Below are positions 1 through 60,617 of a DNA stretch of 60,617 bases, piece after piece. The stretch comes from Candidatus Omnitrophota bacterium (lineage in GTDB: Bacteria > Omnitrophota > Gorgyraeia > Zapsychrales > Fredricksoniimonadaceae). The stretch covers positions 1-60,617 of the forward strand of contig JAGWOI010000014.1 in assembly GCA_028870995.1 (NCBI GenBank). Reading direction: 5' to 3'. A model generated the notes under the pieces. The model saw only the letters and a list, made by a program, of their open reading frames with translations, had not been told where the DNA came from and did not search any database. Numbering within the stretch: position 1 is the first letter of the stretch; each line of letters opens with the position of its first letter. Both the position numbers and the translations under genes were made by a program.

Positions 1-524
1 CGTTTTTCTAAAGAAGATTCAACCTTGCTTAGAATACTAACGATTTGCTCTTGAACCGATCTTGGAGGTAAAAAAATTTTAAGATTATCAACATGTTCGT
101 TTCTGAGATTATAAATATTTGCACCAGAAGCAAAACTCGAAATTGTCTGTCTATAATACGGCGTCTTAAAGAAATACGACAAGTATCTTGAGTCAATGTC
201 AGAATTAGGTCTTAGAACTTTACAAAATGCCCCAAAACTACCTTTAAAATCATTTTTAATTTGGGCAGCTTTACCTACAACTGTCATACTTCCACTGGAA
301 GCAGCAATCACGATATCATTTCTTCGTAAAATTTGTGTTTCAGATATATATTTCTCAGGCACATATAATAAGTCTTCATATAATATTTCACCGTCAAGAA
401 TATTATTCGCTCTTAAAATAGGCAAATATTTATCTCTTGACTCCTTTATTGCTTCTTGGCCATTATAGGAAACACCTCTAATCTGCTTTGCAACATCACT
501 TATAGAAACATAAGAAGATTTCAT
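1..524 (-). CDS. hsdS: Type I restriction enzyme specificity subunit HsdS (3' end cut by window)
   Basis: The frame is open from an ATG at 524 to the window edge, about 174 residues, so only the N-terminal target-recognition domain is present. The end of the visible part reads LPPRSVQEQIVSIL, the usual junction from a recognition domain into the conserved coiled-coil spacer of HsdS; GANIYNLR also fits the family. HsdS selects the DNA sequence methylated and cut by the HsdM/HsdR complex. Its ATG overlaps the hsdM stop codon (TAATG), so the two are probably translationally coupled. The DNA is clearly AT-richer than the core genes of the window, as is common for horizontally exchanged specificity genes. 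The second recognition domain would lie outside the window. Confidence 0.88.
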   Translation of the reverse strand, partial: MKSSYVSISDVAKQIRGVSYNGQEAIKESRDKYLPILRANNILDGEILYEDLLYVPEKYISETQILRRNDIVIAASSGSMTVVGKAAQIKNDFKGSFGAFCKVLRPNSDIDSRYLSYFFKTPYYRQTISSFASGANIYNLRNEHVDNLKIFLPPRSVQEQIVSILSKVESSLEK

Positions 525-2020
525 TATATTATTTCTTCTAATTCTGAAAGACACTGGATTATTTCCTGATTAAGAATCTTTATTCTTTTTAATTGGGCTC
601 TCGGCGAATCGTAGCTTACTTCTTCATACACAACCGGCTTATAGCGGGAAATGGAAAGATCATATTTATTCTCTTTGATCTCCTTGGCATCCACCCAAAA
701 CCACTTCTCCCCTTTTCCGGGCGTCTTTTTCCTATCCCGCGTATTCCATTTTTTGATAATATCAGGAATGTCGTTTTTATCCGGTGTTTTGGTGCGCTTA
801 TCATCCAGGGAATAGCCGTCGGCCTGCATGTCATAGAACCAGACCTTGTCAGTTTTACCGCCCTTAGCAAATATGATAATTGCGGTGGAAACGCCGGCAT
901 AAGGCTTAAAAACACCTGAAGGCATTTTAATAATACCCTGCAATTCGTTGTCTTCCACCAGTCTTTGACGCGCTTCCTTATGCGCGTTGGAAGAACCGAA
1001 TAACACGCCATCCGGCACAATGACCCCGCATTTGCCACCCACCACCATGATTTCTTCAAAAAGATTTAAAAATAAAAGTTCAGTCTTGGTTGTCTTTAGC
1101 TTTAGACGATCGGAAATGTCGCCTTTATCGATATTGCCCTTAAAAGGCGGATTGGCGAGCACGATTTCATACTTTTCTTTCTCTTCATAGCCCTTGGAAA
1201 GCGTATCTTTATATTGGATATCCGGCTTGTCAATGCCGTGCAGGATGGCGTTCATCAAGGCAATACGCACCATGGTTGTATCAAAATCAAAGCCATGCAA
1301 AGCACGTTCCTTCAAGAAAGTCCTTTGCTTTTTATCGGTGATCTTGTCCCCCACCAAGTGGTGAGGAACACCGTCTTCATCATATTCAAGAACATCCGGT
1401 GAAGTGTTTTCTTTAAGAATATGCTGATAGGCATTGATCAAAAAGCCGCCGGTGCCGCAGGCCGGATCGCAGATGCGGTCGCCTAAAACCGGATTGACCA
1501 ATTCCACCATCATGCGGATGATATGCCTTGGCGTGCGGAATTGACCATTTTTCCCTGAAGTTTGCAATTCGCTAAGCAAATATTCGTAAATATCGCCTTG
1601 TGTGTCCTGATTTTGCTGGGTGATGTTTAATTCATCGATAAGACGCACGGATTCCTGCAGCAAGGAAGGCTTAGGGATCATAAACACCGCGTCCTTCATG
1701 GCCTTGCTAAATTCACCATCTTCGCCTTTTAAGATCTTTATAAAGGGAAATACCTTATCCCGCACATGGGTCAACATTTCCTCGGCAGGCATGTTGATCC
1801 AATAAGACCAACGGCAATTCTCTTGGCCTTTATAAATGGAAATATATTTCTCATTGCGCCTTTCCGCAGCTTTTTTATGCACCAGGTCCATGTCTTCCAG
1901 ACGACGCATAAAAATGAGATAGGAAATCTGCTCAATGGCGGTCAGGGGATTGGCAATGCCGCCTTCCCAGAATTTGTTCCAAAGCCGTTTGATTTGATTC
2001 TTTAATTCAGGTGCAAGCAT
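524..2020 (-). CDS. hsdM: Type I restriction-modification DNA methyltransferase subunit HsdM
   Basis: N6-adenine methyltransferase subunit of a type I system. About 498 residues from the ATG at 2020, preceded by AGAAAGGG; the frame extends 28 codons further upstream, but those residues are not family-like and overlap the end of the fic gene. An N-terminal helical HsdM domain (ELKNQIKRLWNKFWEGG) is followed by the methyltransferase fold. The SAM-binding motif DPACGTGGF is near residues 185-193 and the catalytic NPPF near 290-293. It lies directly downstream of fic (stop at 2022) and overlaps hsdS. All catalytic motifs are intact, so an active methylase is expected, although recognition specificity cannot be read because hsdS is incomplete. 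Confidence 0.95.
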   Translation of the reverse strand: MLAPELKNQIKRLWNKFWEGGIANPLTAIEQISYLIFMRRLEDMDLVHKKAAERRNEKYISIYKGQENCRWSYWINMPAEEMLTHVRDKVFPFIKILKGEDGEFSKAMKDAVFMIPKPSLLQESVRLIDELNITQQNQDTQGDIYEYLLSELQTSGKNGQFRTPRHIIRMMVELVNPVLGDRICDPACGTGGFLINAYQHILKENTSPDVLEYDEDGVPHHLVGDKITDKKQRTFLKERALHGFDFDTTMVRIALMNAILHGIDKPDIQYKDTLSKGYEEKEKYEIVLANPPFKGNIDKGDISDRLKLKTTKTELLFLNLFEEIMVVGGKCGVIVPDGVLFGSSNAHKEARQRLVEDNELQGIIKMPSGVFKPYAGVSTAIIIFAKGGKTDKVWFYDMQADGYSLDDKRTKTPDKNDIPDIIKKWNTRDRKKTPGKGEKWFWVDAKEIKENKYDLSISRYKPVVYEEVSYDSPRAQLKRIKILNQEIIQCLSELEEII

Positions 2021-2021
2021 G

Positions 2022-3065
2022 TTAACCCTTTCTACGCCATTTGGCCCCGCGCCCCATGCCGGTAGATGAAATCTGGCCGGCATCGCGCAATTCACGCAGG
2101 ACAAGGCGGATCATGTCCCGGCTTATATGAGGACATTCTTTCTCAATTTCAGTAATCGAAAATGGCTTAATGGCTTTATTCACAAATGCTTTGATGAGGT
2201 CGGTCTTCGAGACTTCATCACGGAATATTCCAACCCTTGACTCGAATTCTTTATAGGCGGCAATCAACACCCCGTAAAAATACCGCAGCCATGGCTCGGC
2301 ATTGTGAGCGGCTTGATGCCAGCCTTTTGAAGATGTTTCCAATGTTTCGTAATAGGTCTCTTTGCTGTCCTCAATAACTCTTTCCAAGCTGATATATTTG
2401 CCAACCTTATACCCTGCCTGGTACAAAAGTAACAAGCTTATCAAGCGGGCTGTACGTCCATTTCCGTCTTGAAACGGATGAATACACAAATAATCCAAAA
2501 CAAAAAGCGGTATCAAAATAAGAGAAGAAATCCCCTCCTGTTTATTGACATAAAGATACCGATCAACCAGGGCACTCATGTAATCATAGGTTTGGCTGGC
2601 CGATGGTGGCTGAAAACGCAGGCGGATACTGCCATCCTTCATGCGGTCAACGATTTTATTATCTTCCCGCTTGAATGATCCGCCAGACTGCTGAGTGTAC
2701 TTATATAAAAATTCGTGAAACATCAAGATCGAATTTAGAGAAACCGGCACTGCGCTAAAATTTGTATGGATATAGTCTAAAGCATCCCTGTAGCCTGCCA
2801 CCTCTTCTTCAGGACGGCTGCGCGGCGTTGATTGCTGCTGCACAATATCGATAATGCGCTCATGTTTGACATCAATGCCTTCAATCCGGTTGGAAGACTC
2901 GACACTTTCGACCTTTGCCCGCTCAACGAGCCTCTCCAGAACGTCGGGAGACTGCCTGGTATAAAGAGCTTCCTTGCCCTTATATTCAGACAAGGCATTG
3001 GTCATATTGAGCAATTGCGGTGTTATATGCAGGCCATTTAAATATTCTTGCGAGAAAGATTTCAT
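2022..3065 (-). CDS. Fic/DOC-family protein (predicted AMPylator) inside the hsd operon
   Basis: 347 residues. The Fic catalytic motif HPFQDGNGRTAR is at about 196-207, with the base His196 and the phosphate-binding GNGR. An N-terminal motif SSNRIEG (about 57-63) matches the [S/T]xxxE[G/N] inhibitory helix, so this is a self-inhibited class II Fic protein that would transfer a nucleotide moiety (usually AMP) to a hydroxyl of a target protein. The C-terminal 80 residues look like a winged helix (KPFSITEIEKECPHISRDM). It overlaps the hsdR stop by ATGA and runs straight into hsdM, so it is part of the same transcript. Fic genes are known as occasional passengers in type I operons; the target here is unknown and may be the restriction machinery or a host protein. 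Confidence 0.9.
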   Translation of the reverse strand: MKSFSQEYLNGLHITPQLLNMTNALSEYKGKEALYTRQSPDVLERLVERAKVESVESSNRIEGIDVKHERIIDIVQQQSTPRSRPEEEVAGYRDALDYIHTNFSAVPVSLNSILMFHEFLYKYTQQSGGSFKREDNKIVDRMKDGSIRLRFQPPSASQTYDYMSALVDRYLYVNKQEGISSLILIPLFVLDYLCIHPFQDGNGRTARLISLLLLYQAGYKVGKYISLERVIEDSKETYYETLETSSKGWHQAAHNAEPWLRYFYGVLIAAYKEFESRVGIFRDEVSKTDLIKAFVNKAIKPFSITEIEKECPHISRDMIRLVLRELRDAGQISSTGMGRGAKWRRKG

Positions 3066-5851
3066 TTAAGCGGCACCTTTTCATTGAGGAATTCCAATAC
3101 TTCTTTAAGATCATCCTTTGAGAATAAGCGTTCTGCCGCACCCGTACCAAAGGCTTCTACCGGGCCCTCATAGAAATCGTCGATGACCAGCAATTCATGG
3201 CGGCGGACCTTGGCCAGAAAGACGCTCTTAATAACGCGTAAAAACCGCGTTTGGTCAGTGTTATAGTTATGCGCAATAATAAAAGCATCAAAGCTCTCGG
3301 AAATCTGATCTTCCTGGCTTTTGAATTTGTATTTGCCAAAAATCGACTTGATAAATTGCACCAAGGTTCCTTCAGGCTGCTTGTAAACCTCCCTAAGCTT
3401 TTCTTCGGTTATGTATAAATCAGGGCTGTTAAGGGTTTTTTCCAATTCTTCCAAATCCTGGTCATTAACCGGCTGATCGTTACGAAGTTTGGAGACAGCT
3501 TCCTGCTTTTCAGCAAGGTCTTTAATATGCTTCTCAACTTTTTCCTTATAAATATGAACGTATTCTCCCTCGCCATTAGGCCCGAATTCTATCCATTTAC
3601 GTTCGAGGATTTCATCATCCAAATCAAATTCGATGATCTTTTGGCCGTCTTTGCGCTTATATTTCATTATCGGTGAAAGCTTGCTCTTAGCATCCCGGAT
3701 ATTATCTATACTTAAAGACGACCAGAAAGCATCCGATGACATTTTGTATATTGCTTCCTCATGGCGCTTAACGACCTGAAGAGTCATAGGCAGCAGGCGC
3801 AGGTCATCTTTGACAATGTTTTTGAGGTCAAGAATGCGGCGTTCATCCTGATTTAAATGAGCTAATTCCAACTGTTCACACTTTAAAATGAATGAATATT
3901 CATCATAATTGACATCTTCGAGGAAACGCATCAAAGGCGCCACGTGGTCATAAAGAAAATCAGTATCGATATTCTTCCAGAATTCAGGGCTTGATAATCT
4001 TTGCAAAACATCCTTTCGCTCCTTGACACTGATAGAGTCTTTCGGAAGCAGATCAATCATCATCTTTAATTCGTTGATGATATGGCGAACTTCGGTATGA
4101 TCGCCTCTATTGTGATAAAACCGTAACAGATTGATTCTAGCCTTGAATACCCTTGAAGTGATGGCATCTTCGACGGCGGGAGCTTCACCTTCCGGTTTTT
4201 GCCCGAAATATTCAAAATTGTTCCAATGGTCGATAATTAAGAAGTTCTCCTTGTGAGGGCACCAAGGTTTCATATTATTTTTATCCAGAGTCCGTGTGCC
4301 ACGTCCGATCATCTGCCAGAATTTGATTTTGCTGAAAACGGGTTTGGCAAAAACCAAATTGACGACCTCTCTGACATCAACGCCGGTATCGAGCATGTCC
4401 ACCGAAATGGCAATGCGCGGATAGCTGTCATTCTCAAAACGCGTCAAAAAGCCATCGGCCCTGGAATCTTCAGAAACAACAACTTCAGCAAGCCTTCCTT
4501 TATATTGTGGATAAAGCCTATCAAAAGCATCCAAAAGCCGGTACGCATGATTCTTGGTCATGGCAAAGTAAATTGTTTTTCCGGGCAAGGTTCCCGTATC
4601 GTCTTTGGTACATACCTCCATGAACTCCCGAACCATCGCCTCATGGGTGCCGGTATTTGTAAAACGCTTCTCAAACTCCGTGCCTTCAAAGTTCAATTCA
4701 TCGAGCGTCTTGCCCTCTTCCACCAATTTCTTCTTTACTGCCGGCGGAATTTGGTCTTCACGCAGACCTTTAATTTGAAACGATGTTTTGGCATGATAAG
4801 GCACAAAGCCAAGCAGATGTTTTTCTTCAACGGCCTTTTCGTAGGAATAATTAAAGAAATTGTGTTTTATATCCTTCTTCTTTAAGTCCACTTCAAAGAA
4901 CCGGAAGGTATCCCGCTCGATAAATTGTGCAGGAGTGGCGGTAAGGCCGATTTGAATGGCATCGAAATAGGCAAGCACATCCTTCCATTTGTTATAAATG
5001 GAGCGATGGCATTCATCGGCAATCACAAGATCAAAGAATCCGGGAGAAATTTCCTTATAGCATTCCATCATTGTCTGGATGGTGGCTGCATAAAGCCGTT
5101 TCTCGGTATTAAACTTGCCGGAAGTGATTTTGCCGCAGCTTTCCGTAAAAAAACCCTGAAAACCTTTCTTACCATAGGCCTGGTCACGCAGCACCTTGCG
5201 GTCCGTTAAGAATAAAACTGTATTGATACGTTTAGCCCTTAACAGGCAATCAATAGTGGCCATAGCGGTCCGCGTCTTCCCTGTACCCGTTGCCATGACT
5301 AATAAAAACTTACGGCGGCCTTCTTGTATGCCACTTAATACCGTCCGAATGGCCTCCGCCTGATAATCGCGGTCGGCAATTTCAGGGTTTATTTTAATTT
5401 CGTTTAAATTCTTCGCCGCTTCTTGTCTCTGAAAGAATAGCCGCTCTAAATCACGTCTCTCAAAAAAGCCATAAACTAAACGGGGTGGATATCGAAGCCT
5501 GTCCCAAAATAAAATGTCCTCACCATTAGTGAGAAAAATGAACGGTTCGATGCCGAATTTCGCTTTGATATTATCGGCATATCCCTCTGCCTGGCGTTGG
5601 CCTAAGCGCGCACTTTTACTAGTCCTTTTTGCTTCAACAATGGCAAGAGGCAATTCGTTGCGGCCTAACAATAAATAGTCAGCGTATTCATGTTGCGCGC
5701 CATATTCTGCTTGCGGCTCGGAAACCCCCTGTCTTCCCCACACCTTGTCCATCTCATATTCTTCAAGATACTTAACGGGGCCGTTGGGAGACCATAAGGC
5801 CTTTTTTAAGGCCTCATTAATGTAATTTTTTCGAGTTTGCGCTTCGTTCAT
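3062..5851 (-). CDS. hsdR: Type I restriction enzyme endonuclease/translocase subunit HsdR
   Basis: 929 residues from ATG 5851 (MNEAQTRKNYI). The frame also has an upstream TTG at 5890, but that TTG is the first half of the -35 box TTGACA and is rejected as a start. Domain order: an N-terminal PD-(D/E)xK nuclease (Asp58, then EAK at 73-75), SF2 helicase motor with Walker A TGTGKT near 188-193, DECH near 279-282 and LTATPA, then a helicase C domain (MIGRGTR) and a long C-terminal domain of EcoEI type that docks on HsdM. The enzyme translocates DNA with ATP and cuts remote from unmethylated sites. It is first in the operon hsdR-fic-hsdM-hsdS. The predicted transcript starts only about 4-5 bases before the ATG. 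Confidence 0.95.
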   Translation of the reverse strand: MNEAQTRKNYINEALKKALWSPNGPVKYLEEYEMDKVWGRQGVSEPQAEYGAQHEYADYLLLGRNELPLAIVEAKRTSKSARLGQRQAEGYADNIKAKFGIEPFIFLTNGEDILFWDRLRYPPRLVYGFFERRDLERLFFQRQEAAKNLNEIKINPEIADRDYQAEAIRTVLSGIQEGRRKFLLVMATGTGKTRTAMATIDCLLRAKRINTVLFLTDRKVLRDQAYGKKGFQGFFTESCGKITSGKFNTEKRLYAATIQTMMECYKEISPGFFDLVIADECHRSIYNKWKDVLAYFDAIQIGLTATPAQFIERDTFRFFEVDLKKKDIKHNFFNYSYEKAVEEKHLLGFVPYHAKTSFQIKGLREDQIPPAVKKKLVEEGKTLDELNFEGTEFEKRFTNTGTHEAMVREFMEVCTKDDTGTLPGKTIYFAMTKNHAYRLLDAFDRLYPQYKGRLAEVVVSEDSRADGFLTRFENDSYPRIAISVDMLDTGVDVREVVNLVFAKPVFSKIKFWQMIGRGTRTLDKNNMKPWCPHKENFLIIDHWNNFEYFGQKPEGEAPAVEDAITSRVFKARINLLRFYHNRGDHTEVRHIINELKMMIDLLPKDSISVKERKDVLQRLSSPEFWKNIDTDFLYDHVAPLMRFLEDVNYDEYSFILKCEQLELAHLNQDERRILDLKNIVKDDLRLLPMTLQVVKRHEEAIYKMSSDAFWSSLSIDNIRDAKSKLSPIMKYKRKDGQKIIEFDLDDEILERKWIEFGPNGEGEYVHIYKEKVEKHIKDLAEKQEAVSKLRNDQPVNDQDLEELEKTLNSPDLYITEEKLREVYKQPEGTLVQFIKSIFGKYKFKSQEDQISESFDAFIIAHNYNTDQTRFLRVIKSVFLAKVRRHELLVIDDFYEGPVEAFGTGAAERLFSKDDLKEVLEFLNEKVPLK

Positions 5852-5861
5852 ATCTGGGTAA

Positions 5862-5890
5862 AATATAGCACTAAGTAGGTAATATGTCAA
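5862..5890 (-). promoter_or_regulatory. Promoter of the hsdR operon
   Basis: Reading the minus strand, a perfect -35 box TTGACA (5890-5885), a 17-base spacer and TATATT (5867-5862) stand just before the hsdR ATG at 5851. The transcription start would fall around 5855, leaving a leader too short for a ribosome-binding site. The promoter is embedded in a palindrome described separately. Confidence 0.8.
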
Positions 5891-54649: not shown

Positions 54650-54678
54650 TTGTCAAAGCTCCCAGGGTTAGCTATAAT
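54650..54678 (+). promoter_or_regulatory. Promoter of the PpiD/SurA-like gene
   Basis: TTGTCA (54650-54655), 17 bases, TATAAT (54673-54678), start near 54685, about 31 bases before the ATG at 54716. It stands back to back with the hisG promoter, with the two -35 boxes only 9 bases apart. Confidence 0.75.
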
Positions 54679-54715
54679 GGCACCTTTCAAAACCATTCAT
54701 AGGGGACACGTGTTT

Positions 54716-56137
54716 ATGCTCGAAGTTTTCCGCAAGAAAGGCGTCAACCAAACCATCCTTTGGGTCATCACCGTCATCGTCATTCTCTCTTTCGGCGTTT
54801 TCTGGACCGCCAACCGTTACGACACCGGCGTCAACAGTGTCGGTACGATGTACGGCCACAGCGTCAGCCGCCAGGATTTCGAACAGGCTTATGATGATGC
54901 CCGCGACCAGGACATCAGGACCTACGGTACCGATTTCTTCAAAAACAGCGCCAAATTCGACCTGGAAGCACAGGCCTGGGACCGTTTGATCCTCCTACGG
55001 GAAGCCCGCAAGCGCGGCATCAGGATAAGCGACGCCCAGGTGGTGGACGCGATCGCCAGCATGCCATTTTTCCAGACAGGCGGAAAATTTGACGAGGTAC
55101 GGTATGAAGAAACCGTGCAAAGCCCCGACGGTTTTGACCGGCCCACCCATGATTTCGAGGAAGGCGTCCGCCGGCAACTGATGATCAAGAAATTGGTCGA
55201 CCAGGTCGCCCCTGAAAAAACGTTCACTGATGCCGAATTACGCAACATTTACGATAAACGCAACGAAAAGATCACCCTGCAATATGTCTTGTTCAATGCG
55301 GCTGATTATGCCAAGAATGTTCCCGTTACTGACGAGGGCATCAACAAGTATTACCAACAGCACCATGAAGAGTTTGCCGCTCCCCCTTCCATCGTCCTTA
55401 ATTATGTGCAGACCAAGAATAAAGCCCTGGCCCAGGCTCTTTCCCGTCAGCTGGTGCCGGGAAGCGATTTTGCCGCCACGGCCAAAAAATTAAATTTAGA
55501 AGTTAAGACATCCGCGGCCTTTACTCAGGACCAGCCGATCCTTACCTTCGCTTATAATCCCGACAATATCCAAAAGTTCTTTGCCATGGAACCGGGGGAA
55601 TATTCTCCGGTTCTCGAAGCCCCGGACGGCTGGCAGATCGTGCAGCTCAAGGAAAAGCATCCCTCTTCCATCCCCGCTTTAAAGGATATTAAGGATAAAG
55701 TGAAAGAAGCGCTGCTCTTGGAAAAAGGCTTTAGCCTCGCTAAGCCCCAGGCGGACAAGGCGCTAGCCGCGCTGACCAAGGCATTAAAGACCAAAGATTT
55801 TAAGACAGCAGCGACGGACTTAGGCCTGAAGGTCCAGGAGACCCCCGCTTTCGGACGCAGGGAATTCATCGCCAGCACCGGACTGATAGCGGAATTCCAA
55901 CAGGAAGTCGACGAGCTTAATGCGGACAAAAGATTAAGCGGCGTCATCGCCACGTCACAGGGACCGGCCATCATCTATCTTGAAAAAGAACAAAAGCCTT
56001 CAAAGGCGGAGTTTGATTCGGATAAGGAGAACTTCAGGGAAATGCTGGGTGCCGAAGAGCGCAATCAGCTCCTGGTGGCCTTCATAACCCGGCTTCGTGC
56101 CGAAGCTGATGTGCACAGCCGGATCAAGACCCGGTAA
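54716..56137 (+). CDS. PpiD/SurA-like membrane-anchored peptidyl-prolyl isomerase
   Basis: 473 residues from ATG 54716 (MLEVFRKKGVNQTILWVITV); AGGGG is 10 bases upstream. A GTG six bases earlier is also possible. A single membrane helix (about 13-32) anchors it, followed by a SurA_N-like chaperone region (GHSVSRQDFEQAYDDARDQ, RLILLREARKRGIRISDAQV) and a parvulin-like domain (PSIVLNYVQTKNKALAQALS, FFAMEPGEYSPVLEAPDGWQ, IVQLKEK). It should help outer-membrane protein folding in the periplasm. Isomerase residues are weakly conserved, so it may act mainly as a chaperone. It ends 14 bases inside the convergent giant gene. Confidence 0.87.
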   Translation: MLEVFRKKGVNQTILWVITVIVILSFGVFWTANRYDTGVNSVGTMYGHSVSRQDFEQAYDDARDQDIRTYGTDFFKNSAKFDLEAQAWDRLILLREARKRGIRISDAQVVDAIASMPFFQTGGKFDEVRYEETVQSPDGFDRPTHDFEEGVRRQLMIKKLVDQVAPEKTFTDAELRNIYDKRNEKITLQYVLFNAADYAKNVPVTDEGINKYYQQHHEEFAAPPSIVLNYVQTKNKALAQALSRQLVPGSDFAATAKKLNLEVKTSAAFTQDQPILTFAYNPDNIQKFFAMEPGEYSPVLEAPDGWQIVQLKEKHPSSIPALKDIKDKVKEALLLEKGFSLAKPQADKALAALTKALKTKDFKTAATDLGLKVQETPAFGRREFIASTGLIAEFQQEVDELNADKRLSGVIATSQGPAIIYLEKEQKPSKAEFDSDKENFREMLGAEERNQLLVAFITRLRAEADVHSRIKTR

Positions 56138-59100
56138 CACCAAGAAACTTCCTCAAGTCAACCATAGGCTGGACATGGATAATGACCGGCATGAAACCCG
56201 GGGCATTGCCCAACCGGGCCAGCTGGGCGGGATCAAGATGAAATTTAATCGCCTGGCCGGAGTTATTCATGTGCAGATTCATTTGCCCGGCGGTCAGGTC
56301 GATACCGCCGGTCGTCTGGGCCTTGTCCGCATCCAAGATGCCTTGCAGCATGTTGCCCACCTCTGCCATCGACGCCGGACGCTGTGCCGACGCCCCCACC
56401 ATGCGATTGGTCAGGTCATCGATCTTCATGGAAACGTTCTGCGATACCGGGTTTTCGACATCATGCTGCGAAAGCACATCCTGCAAGGTCCTGCCCAGGC
56501 TGTACATGTCGGAAGAAACGCTGCTTAAATTTTCATACTTGTCCGAATAAGAAGGTGTCATGGCGGGGATCGGTTCACCGAACTTCCTGGCAATGCCAAA
56601 ATCAATCAACATAAATTCGCCCCGGGCATTAACAACGATGTTCGCCGGTTTAATATCATTATGCGCCCACCCCAATTGGTGAACCGCCTGCAGCGTTTGG
56701 ACAAGGCCCTGCACAATACCTATTTTTGCAGCCATAGGCATGGCAAACCAAAACTCCGGCGATTTATTAAGGCTTACCCCTCCCTCGATGCCTTTTAGTT
56801 TCATCCAAAAGGCGTTGTTCTCATCGACCCCTACCTCCAAAAGCTGCGGCACTCCCTGAATTCCCGACTCATTCATATGATAAATCAACCGCGCGGAATC
56901 CTTGGTGGTCTTATTAGAGGGGCCGCGATGCGCGACCTTATAAAAAATGCTTGTGTCGTCCGGGTCCTGGTAGACAGAGGCCGCCCCGCCTTCTCCCAGG
57001 ACTTCCATCCGGGCAAAATCCGGTGCCGATTCGCTGACAAGCCCGTCGAATTCGGGTATCTTATTCAATAAATTTAATGCCTGTTTTCTGGCCCCGGAAA
57101 CCGGTGGCAGTACGGAGACCATGGCACTGTTGGCGCTGTTGGCAATCTCGCTCAACCGCAAGGCGTCAGGATTATTTTGATCTACCAGTTCAGGCAGCGC
57201 AAACTTCAATAACGCCGCGGGGCTGCCCTGCTTTTCCAAGAAAGCCTGCTTTTGCATTATTAAACCGCCGAGATGCCCAACCTCAATGAAGAACGTGTAT
57301 TGGCCGTTAGTCCATCTGGCCTGATCTTGAGCGACGTAGCCGATGACATCCCTTCTATAAATATCCGCCATGGACTTGACGTCATGGGCCAACCGAGCCG
57401 ATTTAAATTGTCCGTCGTCCAAAGGATCCAACGCCGCGAGAACGGCCTTTTTCGCATTTTCCGGCTGGGTCCAATAATTATCTTCTATTTCCAAAGTGCG
57501 CAAAGCTTCCGGATTGGTTTGGTCCACCAGCCGGGGCAAAGCAAACCTTAACAGGGCTGCCGGGCTGCTCTCCTTATCTAAATAAGGTTTTTTGACCACA
57601 GAAGCCATCAGGCCAGAAAGGCCGCCTCTCTCCCTGAAAAATCCTATTTGACCGTCGGTAAACCTTTTGCTATCGGAGGCTTTGTAGGCGATAACATACT
57701 TTCTGTACAACTCGGCCATACGTTTAATATCCCCCGCCTTACGGGCCGCTTCAAATTTCCCCTTGTCTTCAACGCTTTCATCGCCAATACTATCCAGCAC
57801 AGCCAGGATATAATTCTTCGCGGTGATTTCATTGTCCCAAAAACCCCGGGGAAAGGTCACATGGTCTCTTCGCTTGGCCATGTACCACCTCTTAGCGTCC
57901 GCATAAGAAAAACCGTCCTTCACTGCTTTGATTTCAGAAGGGCTGCTGCGCATGGCCGGGTCTTGTGAAACACTGTAATCAATTTCCAGCGTAATGGCCG
58001 TGTTGTTTTCAATGGAAACGCTGGTACCGTTGTTGGTAAACTTCAGCCCTCCCTCAAACCGCGCGGACTTATTGGCATCAACCACCCTGCGTACGGTGCC
58101 TTCCCAGTCCGCCATAAATAACTCCCCGTTAGTGAAGCCAAGGGCCAATTCGCTGCCGCTTACACGGACCAAGGCCTTGCCGCGCCACCCGGCCTCAAAG
58201 GTCATGGTGCTTCCAGGAGCCAAGAATCTTGTTTTGGGCAGGATCCCCTGGTCCTCTCCGGTGGCCTTCTGCAAATCCTCATCGGCATCAGGAGTGGACA
58301 GGCGTTCGAAAAAAGGGTTTCTTGAAGAGAAATACTGTTTATACCTGCCCAGGTCCTGCGCTTTCAAGAACTCTCTGACTTCAGGATAGGTATCAAATTC
58401 GTTTAAGATGCCCACCAAATTCCAATACAACTCCGAGCCGTTGATTTTATCGAGCGGTGATCCGCTGCCTTTCATCAATTGCATTAAGTTAGCTCTATTG
58501 TGGTCTATGACCAGCACCCTCCTTAAAGAATTGAGCATATACCCCTGGTATTCCATACCTCTCCTGTCTTGGAAGGCGTTGAAATACAGGATCAGTTTGT
58601 TCAGATAACTTCGCAAGGCCGGCACGCTCTGATCAAGGACAACTTCATTCTCAGCATCGATCATATCTACGAATAACGGCTTTATGTCCACAGCAGGCGT
58701 CGTTCGTATTTCTTCCCTGAATAATCCGATATGGATATCCCAGGCCTTCCACGGAAAAACCAAGGGTTTGGAAACAAGCAAGCGCAGATCCTGGTCGTCC
58801 GATTTGAGGATGGCCTTAAGAAAGGCATATACTTCATTGGCGTTGGCGTCTTTAACCAGCTGGAGAACATCTTTACTTGTGATGCTGACGGTATTGGTCT
58901 CGCTGACACCTTCAATCGTTTTTAAAATCAATTCATTGAGAATTTTGTATTTAGCATATTGTTCAGGATGGTGTTTTTGAAAAGCCGCGTCATCTACACT
59001 GACCATCGCCTGGTTAACCGGTATCGCCTGCTTGATGCCGGCCAGGGCACTGTTGAGCGCCACCTTGCTTTCATCCGGCAATAAATACCAGACCAGGTCA

Positions 59101-60617
59101 TGCCGTAACATGACCCCAGGGGCAAACATCGATCTTCCCTTAATCTCCTCCTTAAAATAGACTTTATCCCAATTGATCTGTTTAATATCTTTAGCGATGT
59201 CCTCAACCCCCTTGTAATTCTCGGCGAACCTTACAAGCAGCGGTTTTGGGGGAATGGCCCCGTGGTTCTGCGCAAGCCGAAGCGCACGATCGGTGACCTG
59301 GGCATCCCTATCATGAAGGGTCTGTTTCATGTGGTCGGTCACAGCCACCTTGTTGAACCAATCCAGGTCCTGGTTGGAAGGTATATTGACGAGGGGGCCT
59401 GGCAGGGCCGGCTGGCTTATTTGACGCCGCCGTTTGGCCCAGGCCATGAGCAGCAGCCGCATTAAAGAAGTGCGGGTGGATAATTGTTCATACGATTGGC
59501 GGTCCATGGCCACGACTGTTTTCAAAAAATGTTCGGGATCTTTGAAGTCTACCTTATCGTTCTTAAGCGCGCGAAAAAGCTGGCGGGCCGTGGCAGAAAT
59601 ATCATCTCCATTAAGCGCGTAAAGTTGACTAAGAATATATTGCCCTACAAAATGATTAAACCCGTAATGCGCATCTTTTACAGCCTTTAACAAAAGCGTT
59701 CTGATCTGGCCGCTGCCGGTATTCAAATGTTCTTTGATCATCTGGGCGCGGACGTAGTCCATGAATGCGTTTAAAAATTCGGTAAAGTCACTGTCCTTTG
59801 AATACCCCCTGGGTACATTCTCCCAATTCCACTGGGGATTGTCCTTAATGAATCCTATCAGCAGTTTTCCTATCGCAGCACCCTGCTCCAAGCCTGCCGT
59901 ATTAAAGGACTCCTTTGACAAACGGCCCACCAAGGTGCTGACAAGGGTGTCATAGGCTTCAGCAACCCCATTATGAGGCGCTTGCTGGCGCAAGGCAAAA
60001 TGAATGGCATGACCTACCTCGGAACCCAAACCATGAATGCCGTCATCCACCACCCAATCAATCGTGATTTTATCCTTATACATCCCGTTCGTTGTTGAAG
60101 GATAGGTCCCTTTGGATAACCGCAGGTCAATCTTGCGCATGACTTCGTCGGCCAATTGCGGCTGCCCCATCCGGGAAAGGGCCATGGTCACCACCTCGCG
60201 CAGCAAATCCATGGCCCTGGCATGCTGGGGCGTGTCTTTTTGACGCTGATAGGCCTCCTCCTGCCGGTTCATGAAATTTTCGTAAACGGTATTGGCGGCA
60301 GAATTTTCGCCTAGCATGGCGGGGTTGGAGGCGGTTATGTCGACTAAAACGTCATATGAAGGTCCGGCTTCCTGCTGTTGGTAGCTTTTCAACCAGGTTT
60401 TAACGGTCTGTAAAATACCGCCCTGCATGGCCATGTTGGTCTTACCGATCATGGCAAAATTGACCCCCCCTGAAAAATACTTCCTGGGGATCATCTGCTG
60501 GGTCAGCGGGTCCTGTTCTTCTTTGATGTAGTTGTATACCCCCTTCTTGAAGGCCTGTAAGTACCGTTGGTATATCTTCTGCTTTTCCTGAGGGTCCCGG
60601 ATACTGATCCCCGCCAC
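56124..60617 (-). CDS. Giant multidomain protein with C-terminal Ser/Thr kinase (5' end outside window)
   Basis: 1497 residues to the window edge; the frame is open there, so the true start is beyond. Layout: residues 1-790 unrecognised, with GIHGLGSEVGHAIHFALRQQ near 193-212; a beta-rich module about 798-885; two tandem repeats of about 115-120 residues (922-1046 and 1047-1162; shared features RFTDGQ/RWTNGQ, SPAALLRFALP/SPAALLKFALP, LVDQ); then an intact eukaryotic-type kinase domain about 1205-1428 with LGEGGAASVY, Lys1227, HNDIKPAN (1319-1326), IDFG (1338-1341) and SDMYSLG (1369-1375). The end (GGIDLTAGQMNLHM, FMPVIIHVQPMVDL) resembles a C-terminal segment I recall from Omnitrophota giant proteins. 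Likely a signalling protein; substrates unknown. Confidence 0.75.
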   Translation of the reverse strand: MAGISIRDPQEKQKIYQRYLQAFKKGVYNYIKEEQDPLTQQMIPRKYFSGGVNFAMIGKTNMAMQGGILQTVKTWLKSYQQQEAGPSYDVLVDITASNPAMLGENSAANTVYENFMNRQEEAYQRQKDTPQHARAMDLLREVVTMALSRMGQPQLADEVMRKIDLRLSKGTYPSTTNGMYKDKITIDWVVDDGIHGLGSEVGHAIHFALRQQAPHNGVAEAYDTLVSTLVGRLSKESFNTAGLEQGAAIGKLLIGFIKDNPQWNWENVPRGYSKDSDFTEFLNAFMDYVRAQMIKEHLNTGSGQIRTLLLKAVKDAHYGFNHFVGQYILSQLYALNGDDISATARQLFRALKNDKVDFKDPEHFLKTVVAMDRQSYEQLSTRTSLMRLLLMAWAKRRRQISQPALPGPLVNIPSNQDLDWFNKVAVTDHMKQTLHDRDAQVTDRALRLAQNHGAIPPKPLLVRFAENYKGVEDIAKDIKQINWDKVYFKEEIKGRSMFAPGVMLRHDLVWYLLPDESKVALNSALAGIKQAIPVNQAMVSVDDAAFQKHHPEQYAKYKILNELILKTIEGVSETNTVSITSKDVLQLVKDANANEVYAFLKAILKSDDQDLRLLVSKPLVFPWKAWDIHIGLFREEIRTTPAVDIKPLFVDMIDAENEVVLDQSVPALRSYLNKLILYFNAFQDRRGMEYQGYMLNSLRRVLVIDHNRANLMQLMKGSGSPLDKINGSELYWNLVGILNEFDTYPEVREFLKAQDLGRYKQYFSSRNPFFERLSTPDADEDLQKATGEDQGILPKTRFLAPGSTMTFEAGWRGKALVRVSGSELALGFTNGELFMADWEGTVRRVVDANKSARFEGGLKFTNNGTSVSIENNTAITLEIDYSVSQDPAMRSSPSEIKAVKDGFSYADAKRWYMAKRRDHVTFPRGFWDNEITAKNYILAVLDSIGDESVEDKGKFEAARKAGDIKRMAELYRKYVIAYKASDSKRFTDGQIGFFRERGGLSGLMASVVKKPYLDKESSPAALLRFALPRLVDQTNPEALRTLEIEDNYWTQPENAKKAVLAALDPLDDGQFKSARLAHDVKSMADIYRRDVIGYVAQDQARWTNGQYTFFIEVGHLGGLIMQKQAFLEKQGSPAALLKFALPELVDQNNPDALRLSEIANSANSAMVSVLPPVSGARKQALNLLNKIPEFDGLVSESAPDFARMEVLGEGGAASVYQDPDDTSIFYKVAHRGPSNKTTKDSARLIYHMNESGIQGVPQLLEVGVDENNAFWMKLKGIEGGVSLNKSPEFWFAMPMAAKIGIVQGLVQTLQAVHQLGWAHNDIKPANIVVNARGEFMLIDFGIARKFGEPIPAMTPSYSDKYENLSSVSSDMYSLGRTLQDVLSQHDVENPVSQNVSMKIDDLTNRMVGASAQRPASMAEVGNMLQGILDADKAQTTGGIDLTAGQMNLHMNNSGQAIKFHLDPAQLARLGNAPGFMPVIIHVQPMVDLRKFLGVTGS

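What the first reader, a model, noticed from the sequence alone, without database searches (positions are those of the whole stretch)
56124..60617. Giant kinase protein of more than 1497 residues
An intact eukaryotic-type Ser/Thr kinase sits at the end of a very long chain with no known catalytic domain in the first 1200 residues and no visible membrane helix. Giant proteins of this kind seem typical of Omnitrophota and are largely uncharacterised; they may act in cell-cell interaction or predation-like lifestyles.
Basis: partly seen in the sequence, partly recalled or inferred. Interest (0 to 1): 0.65.

Follow-up and report, generated by a model that had tools for sequence, protein, structure and literature searches.

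The report
Exported modular kinase, Omnitrophota carrier family
The "giant kinase" is one cut-off member of a large, apparently undescribed family of exported, almost cysteine-free proteins in one class of Omnitrophota bacteria, in which one shared front part and one shared tail carry ever-changing enzyme modules joined by a repeated four-letter linker; it looks like an interchangeable delivery vehicle for enzymes.

Summary
In detail: 56124-60617 (-) is 1497 open codons with a kinase at residues 1202-1401, no transmembrane segment, cut by the contig end. The interpretation needs reframing. The gene belongs to a family of about 16 copies in this genome (15-66 in genus mates, up to 69 in family mates; 34/36 sampled genomes of the order, 54 more in the class, none outside). 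Members have a signal peptide, a conserved ~310-aa N-domain (no Pfam, NCBIfam or PDB-fold match), swapped internal modules (kinase, PP2C, receiver, hexokinase, GDH, Fic, M48, WD40...) and a conserved ~65-aa GGIDL tail. Modules are joined by a [DN]xAM linker (233 seen, 22 expected); Cys is 0.12% against 1.13% in neighbouring genes (window protein: 0 in 1497). The break is a collapsed paralog repeat; synteny puts the missing start, with a signal peptide, on contig C44. A same-locus ortholog has only N-domain + kinase + tail, so three modules were gained or lost. Best reading: an exported carrier delivering cytosolic-type enzymes, perhaps into another cell, with [DN]xAM as linker or processing site (inferred). 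The kinase is not fully canonical: the aC-helix Glu is Ser.

The parts
56124..60617 (-). Partial gene of a modular carrier-family protein: 1497 codons to the contig end, 5' end missing
60465..60617 (-). Last 51 residues of the conserved N-domain (model positions 287-337, ending KYFSGG); the rest (signal peptide plus about 290 residues) is off the contig, its first part on C44
   Evidence: (E=2.3e-22)
60315..60326 (-). Linker motif NPAM (residues 98-101)
59016..60314 (-). Module 1 (residues 102-534), unknown fold; a relative (37% id) sits directly behind an N-domain in another genus (L050); holds SEVGHAIH, a zincin-like motif without its first His
59004..59015 (-). Linker motif NQAM (residues 535-538)
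57963..59003 (-). Module 2 (residues 539-885), unknown; no relative found
57951..57962 (-). Linker motif DPAM (residues 886-889)
57132..57950 (-). Module 3 (residues 890-1162), about 100-aa repeats of unknown function; related repeats in other proteins next to other modules (L147, L151, L061)
57120..57131 (-). Linker motif NSAM (residues 1163-1166), in a predicted flexible segment (pLDDT<50) just before the kinase
56415..57014 (-). Protein kinase domain (residues 1202-1401); K1227, D1321, N1326, D1339 present; aC Glu replaced by Ser
56127..56309 (-). Conserved C-terminal GGIDL tail (residues 1437-1497)
54650..56137 (+). Convergent neighbour: SurA/PpiD-like periplasmic chaperone (SurA_N_3 E=3e-25, Rotamase_2 E=1.9e-22); the same neighbour lies beside the ortholog in G006

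Best explanation
The gene encodes an exported, modular carrier protein. A Sec signal peptide and a conserved N-domain take the chain out of the cytoplasm; three modules and a protein kinase follow, separated by flexible [DN]xAM linkers, and a conserved GGIDL tail closes it. The family recombines: carrier ends are kept (and homogenised between copies), internal modules are swapped, gained and lost. Many modules in the family need cytosolic co-substrates (ATP, NAD(P)H, SAM, sugar nucleotides), so the most likely job is to deliver enzymes into another cell (host, prey or partner), where the kinase would phosphorylate or bind target proteins. The linkers probably keep modules independent and may be cut to release them. 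Shown here: family, architecture, swapping, motif enrichment, Cys depletion, signal-peptide-like starts, lineage restriction. Inferred: crossing of the outer membrane, delivery into another cell, cleavage at [DN]xAM, kinase activity.
For: Own-genome search: residues 1-60 and 1430-1495 recur in about 15 other large ORFs while the middles differ. N-domain is 50-69% identical between copies, found in 34 of 37 close genomes with up to 69 copies, all within one class. Signal-peptide-like N-termini in 83 of 86 tested; the window gene's own start, placed on C44 by synteny, has one. Cys 140/114,323 in family regions against 1.13% in 425 neighbouring ORFs, and 0.94% in other signal-peptide ORFs. [DN].AM 233 against 22.1+-4.5; D.AM leads an unbiased scan of gapped triples apart from N-run artefacts. 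Motifs frame domains: receiver 270-377 lies between motifs at 264 and 389, MTase 446-536 between 369 and 616, PP2C and kinase of L149 between D[SGP]AM linkers. Same-locus ortholog in G006 is N-domain + DPAM + kinase + tail, 762 aa. Module list. A B12/radical-SAM member keeps only 4 Cys, 3 of them in CxxxCxxC.
Against: No injection machinery was identified: no T3SS/flagellar export gene (PF01313) and no contractile sheath (PF04984) in the genome, with working controls; only secretins (six). No experimental data. Signal peptides were called by a simple rule, not by SignalP. The kinase lacks the aC Glu and may be a pseudokinase. Cleavage at the linkers is untested.
Confidence: 0.6

Rival explanations
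1. The proteins are exported but stay on the cell surface or in the periplasm as scaffolds, binding proteins or adhesins; the enzyme-like modules, including this kinase, are recruited for binding and are catalytically dead.
For: aC Glu replaced by Ser in the window kinase and its two closest relatives; no ATP is expected in the periplasm; WD40, TPR and HEAT modules are common; giant Omnitrophota proteins are usually read as adhesins (PMC10066038).
Against: Catalytic Lys, Asp, Asn and DFG Asp are kept across three diverged kinases (one has DYG); the radical-SAM member keeps CxxxCxxC against the general loss of Cys; PP2C, Fic, M48, hexokinase and GDH modules are enzyme families.
Confidence: 0.25
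2. Cytoplasmic or membrane-tethered multi-enzyme proteins: the N-terminal hydrophobic segment is an anchor and the modules work inside the producing cell.
For: Modules such as receiver domain, GGDEF, HTH and hexokinase normally work in the cytoplasm.
Against: N-termini have charged n-region, hydrophobic core and A-x-A site; family Cys content is nine-fold lower than in neighbouring genes, not expected for cytoplasmic proteins.
Confidence: 0.12
3. Assembly chimera or pseudogene.
For: The gene ends at a contig end in a repeat shared with other contigs.
Against: 1497 codons without a stop; same-locus ortholog with the same neighbours on both sides in a congener; the break is explained by near-identical N-domains.
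Confidence: 0.03

Closest known systems
'Gigantic' Omnitrophota proteins with Skillet lipocone domains (eLife 2025, PMC12419801)
   Same: Omnitrophota; large multi-domain proteins mixing polysaccharide enzymes, histidine-kinase/receiver parts, peptidases and methylases, read as tools in inter-organism conflict; the module list here overlaps strongly
   Different: The passages I read in that paper describe no shared N-domain, GGIDL tail, [DN]xAM linker or Cys depletion; whether those proteins belong to this family was not tested
Giant ORFs of Velamenicoccia, e.g. the 39,678-aa ORF of V. archaeovorus (PMC10066038)
   Same: Same phylum; large, poorly annotated, proposed extracellular
   Different: Those are >20 kb, the best-known one with 42 predicted transmembrane helices; the window protein is about 1,800 aa without a TM segment in the part present
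Polymorphic toxin systems (review PMC3482391; defining features from own knowledge)
   Same: Conserved trafficking region, variable effector domains, swapping between paralogs
   Different: Variable part is internal and multi-module, with a conserved C-tail; no immunity gene beside the window gene; modules are often metabolic enzymes
Eukaryotic-type Ser/Thr kinases (PF00069), IRAK4-like by fold
   Same: Fold and most catalytic motifs
   Different: aC Glu to Ser, HRD to HND, no Cys, embedded in an exported carrier

Membership tests
Carrier family defined here (N-domain / modules / GGIDL tail) | Conserved N-domain | tested here: met
   Last 51 residues present, E=2.3e-22 to profile A1; start on C44 by synteny
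Carrier family defined here (N-domain / modules / GGIDL tail) | [DN]xAM linkers between modules | tested here: met
   NPAM 98, NQAM 535, DPAM 886, NSAM 1163
Carrier family defined here (N-domain / modules / GGIDL tail) | GGIDL C-tail | tested here: met
   Residues 1437-1497, 25-66% identical to other tails
Eukaryotic-type protein kinase (PF00069) | Profile match and fold | tested here: met
   E=2.3e-14, 53.8 bits against cut-off 31.7; Foldseek to IRAK4 E=1.9e-10
Eukaryotic-type protein kinase (PF00069) | Catalytic Lys, HxDxxxxN, DFG | tested here: met
   K1227, H1319-N-D1321, N1326, D1339-F-G
Eukaryotic-type protein kinase (PF00069) | aC-helix Glu | tested here: not met
   Ser in window, L048, L049; Glu in L052, L055; by alignment, not by structure
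Eukaryotic-type protein kinase (PF00069) | Kinase activity | not testable with these tools
   needs an assay
Polymorphic toxin | Conserved N-terminal trafficking region | tested here: met
   Conserved N-domain behind a signal peptide; that it traffics is inferred
Polymorphic toxin | Variable toxin at the C-terminus | tested here: not met
   C-terminus is the conserved tail
Polymorphic toxin | Adjacent immunity gene | tested here: not met
   Neighbour is a convergent SurA/PpiD-like chaperone; one locus only
T9SS cargo with C-terminal sorting domain | Known CTD family in the tail | tested here: not met
   No Pfam match in the tail at E<=1, no NCBIfam match

The most novel reading that the evidence does not exclude
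A bacterial polyprotein-style delivery system: one exported carrier holds several different enzymes, [DN]xAM is the recognition site of a dedicated protease, and cutting frees the enzymes (kinase, phosphatase, metabolic and signalling enzymes) inside another cell, giving the bacterium a remote set of enzymes assembled by module shuffling.
Probability: 0.25. Interest if true: 0.92.

Novelty: new variant of a known kind. Interest (0 to 1): 0.72.

Why it matters
The N-domain, tail and linker give a simple signature by which many otherwise unannotated Omnitrophota proteins can be recognised and cut into testable pieces. Up to 69 copies in a 2.6 Mb genome is a large investment. If the proteins do act in other cells, they would show what these uncultured, reportedly host-dependent bacteria do to their partners; if [DN]xAM is a cleavage site, it would be a new way of packaging many enzymes in one exported chain.

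Tried and rejected
Internal translation starts at the Met of [DN]xAM: rejected, Shine-Dalgarno-like sequence before only 15 of 233. DNA-level recombination site: mostly rejected, Asp/Asn codons follow background; Ala codons are biased to GCC/GCG (79% against 55% nearby), partly a general Ala-Met effect; left unexplained. Local alignment ends at motifs: only weak enrichment (11.8% against 6% within 20 aa). N-domain against PDB sequences, PDB folds and viral folds: nothing. Modules 1-3 against PDB by sequence: nothing meaningful. A first kinase alignment with short fragments was misaligned in its C-lobe and not used for the fold; the N-lobe part was used for the aC position only. ATP/ADP translocase: no hit, but the control also rang nowhere, so uninformative. 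Literature searches for a description of the family: none found in the open-access library; preprints such as West-Roberts et al. 2023 are not held.

Full report
Observation. The ORF at 56124-60617 (-) is real: 1497 codons without a stop, running off the end of the window, which is the whole of contig C54 of a 2.34-Mb genome bin of 59 contigs. Pfam Pkinase matches residues 1202-1401 (E=2.3e-14), nothing else known is found in residues 1-1200, no membrane helix is visible, and there is not one cysteine. The predicted structure of residues 1149-1497 is a well-folded kinase, closest to IRAK4 in the PDB. Lys1227, Asp1321, Asn1326 and the DFG are present, but the aC Glu position is Ser here and in the two closest relatives, so activity is open.

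A family, not a single giant. Searching the genome with the protein shows that its first ~60 and last ~65 residues recur in many other large ORFs (669-5041 aa) while the middles differ. Reading those ORFs shows one plan: signal peptide, a conserved N-domain ending in KYFSGG, variable middle, conserved GGIDL tail. The bin holds 20 N-domain pieces: 11 complete, 5 cut at contig ends on the 5' side and 4 on the 3' side, and one further 5'-open member on C49, giving about 16 genes. The window gene is one of the cut ones; C54 and C27 share about 150 identical bases and part exactly after KYFSGG, so the break is a collapsed repeat, not a chimera.

The missing start. A congener (G006) has the kinase gene at the same locus, beside the same SurA/PpiD-like neighbour, as a complete 762-aa protein: signal peptide, N-domain, DPAM, kinase (55% identical), tail. 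The DNA upstream of it matches the end of contig C44 of the window's own genome over 965 bp at 73%. C44 ends in a family N-terminus with a signal peptide. So the window gene starts on C44, the middle of its N-domain is missing from the bin, and the full protein should have about 1,800 residues. The comparison also shows that modules 1-3 (residues 102-1162) were gained in the window lineage or lost in G006.

Module swapping. Relatives of module 1, of the module-3 repeats and of the kinase turn up separately in other family proteins with other neighbours. Modules recognised across the family include kinases, PP2C, histidine-kinase ATPase, receiver domains, GGDEF, HTH, hexokinase, glutamate and alanine dehydrogenases, PPDK, UDPGP, glycosyltransferase 5, polysaccharide synthase, methyltransferases, NUDIX, Fic, M48, SNF2, radical SAM with B12 domain, WD40, TPR and HEAT.

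The linker. Between N-domain and tail the pattern [DN]xAM occurs 233 times in 106 proteins against 22.1+-4.5 in shuffles; changing one position ([EQ].AM, [DN].A[LIVF], [DN]..AM) brings it to or slightly below expectation. Other ORFs of the same loci, with or without signal peptide, are at background. The first motif lies a median 25 residues after the N-domain, the last a median 24 before the tail. Residues around it are poorer in aromatic and hydrophobic residues, and the window's NSAM lies in a low-confidence, probably flexible stretch. Motifs frame recognised domains, for instance a receiver domain at 270-377 between motifs at 264 and 389; of about 2,540 residues inside recognised domains, one motif is inside, where 5.5 would be expected (a hand-picked set). 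Internal translation start and DNA-site explanations do not fit.

Export. 83 of 86 members have a signal-peptide-like start by a simple rule (a stricter rule gives 80 of 96). Family Cys content is 0.12% against 1.13% in neighbouring ORFs, and 0.94% in other signal-peptide ORFs. The window itself encodes BamA, LpxC-FabZ and LpxD (named from sequence by eye), so an outer membrane exists. Six secretins are present; type III/flagellar export and contractile sheaths are not. The outer-membrane step is therefore unknown.

Distribution. N-domain matches: 34 of 37 relatives, 88 of 285 genomes of the phylum, all in the same class. The 80 best hits in 84,980 species genomes carry Omnitrophota/Omnitrophica titles, apart from one unnamed bacterium and two loci titled Elulimicrobium. 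The N-domain model (pLDDT 80, pTM 0.79) matches nothing in the PDB.

Interpretation. Exported chains loaded with enzymes that need ATP, NAD(P)H, SAM or sugar nucleotides make most sense if the enzymes work in another cell. That step, cleavage at the linker and kinase activity are inference. The known literature describes giant, poorly annotated Omnitrophota proteins (PMC10066038) and gigantic conflict proteins with a very similar domain mix (PMC12419801); I found no description of this family's shared ends or linker, but preprints and subscription papers were not searchable.

Noticed in passing
window kinase aC helix, about residues 1235-1250 (56868-56915): aC-helix Glu replaced by Ser in the window kinase and its two nearest relatives, kept as Glu in more distant family kinases; possible pseudokinase or atypical kinase
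   Followed up: partly
window 60000-60023 (residues 199-206): SEVGHAIH in module 1 and SEVGHAVH in the relative L050: looks like a zincin HExxH motif that lost its first His in both
   Followed up: partly
motif Ala codons, family-wide: Ala codon of [DN]xAM is GCC/GCG in 79% against 55% nearby; only partly explained by the general Ala-Met context
   Followed up: partly
own genome, ends of C41, C14, C3, C44 and of C54, C17, C27: N-domain cores of several paralogs are near-identical at DNA level while both flanks differ, as after gene conversion
   Followed up: partly
L028:2915-18040 (contig C14): 5041-aa family member without a single cysteine and no recognisable domain in the half scanned
   Followed up: no
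L149:2924-10000: One family protein carries both a PP2C phosphatase and a protein kinase, with linkers of the form D[SGP]AMVG
   Followed up: partly
own genome C17, C10, C39, C13, C44, C24: Six secretin genes in a 2.3-Mb genome
   Followed up: no
window 524-5890: Type I restriction-modification genes with a Fic-like gene (HPFQDGNGRTAR) between M and R subunits, by eye
   Followed up: no
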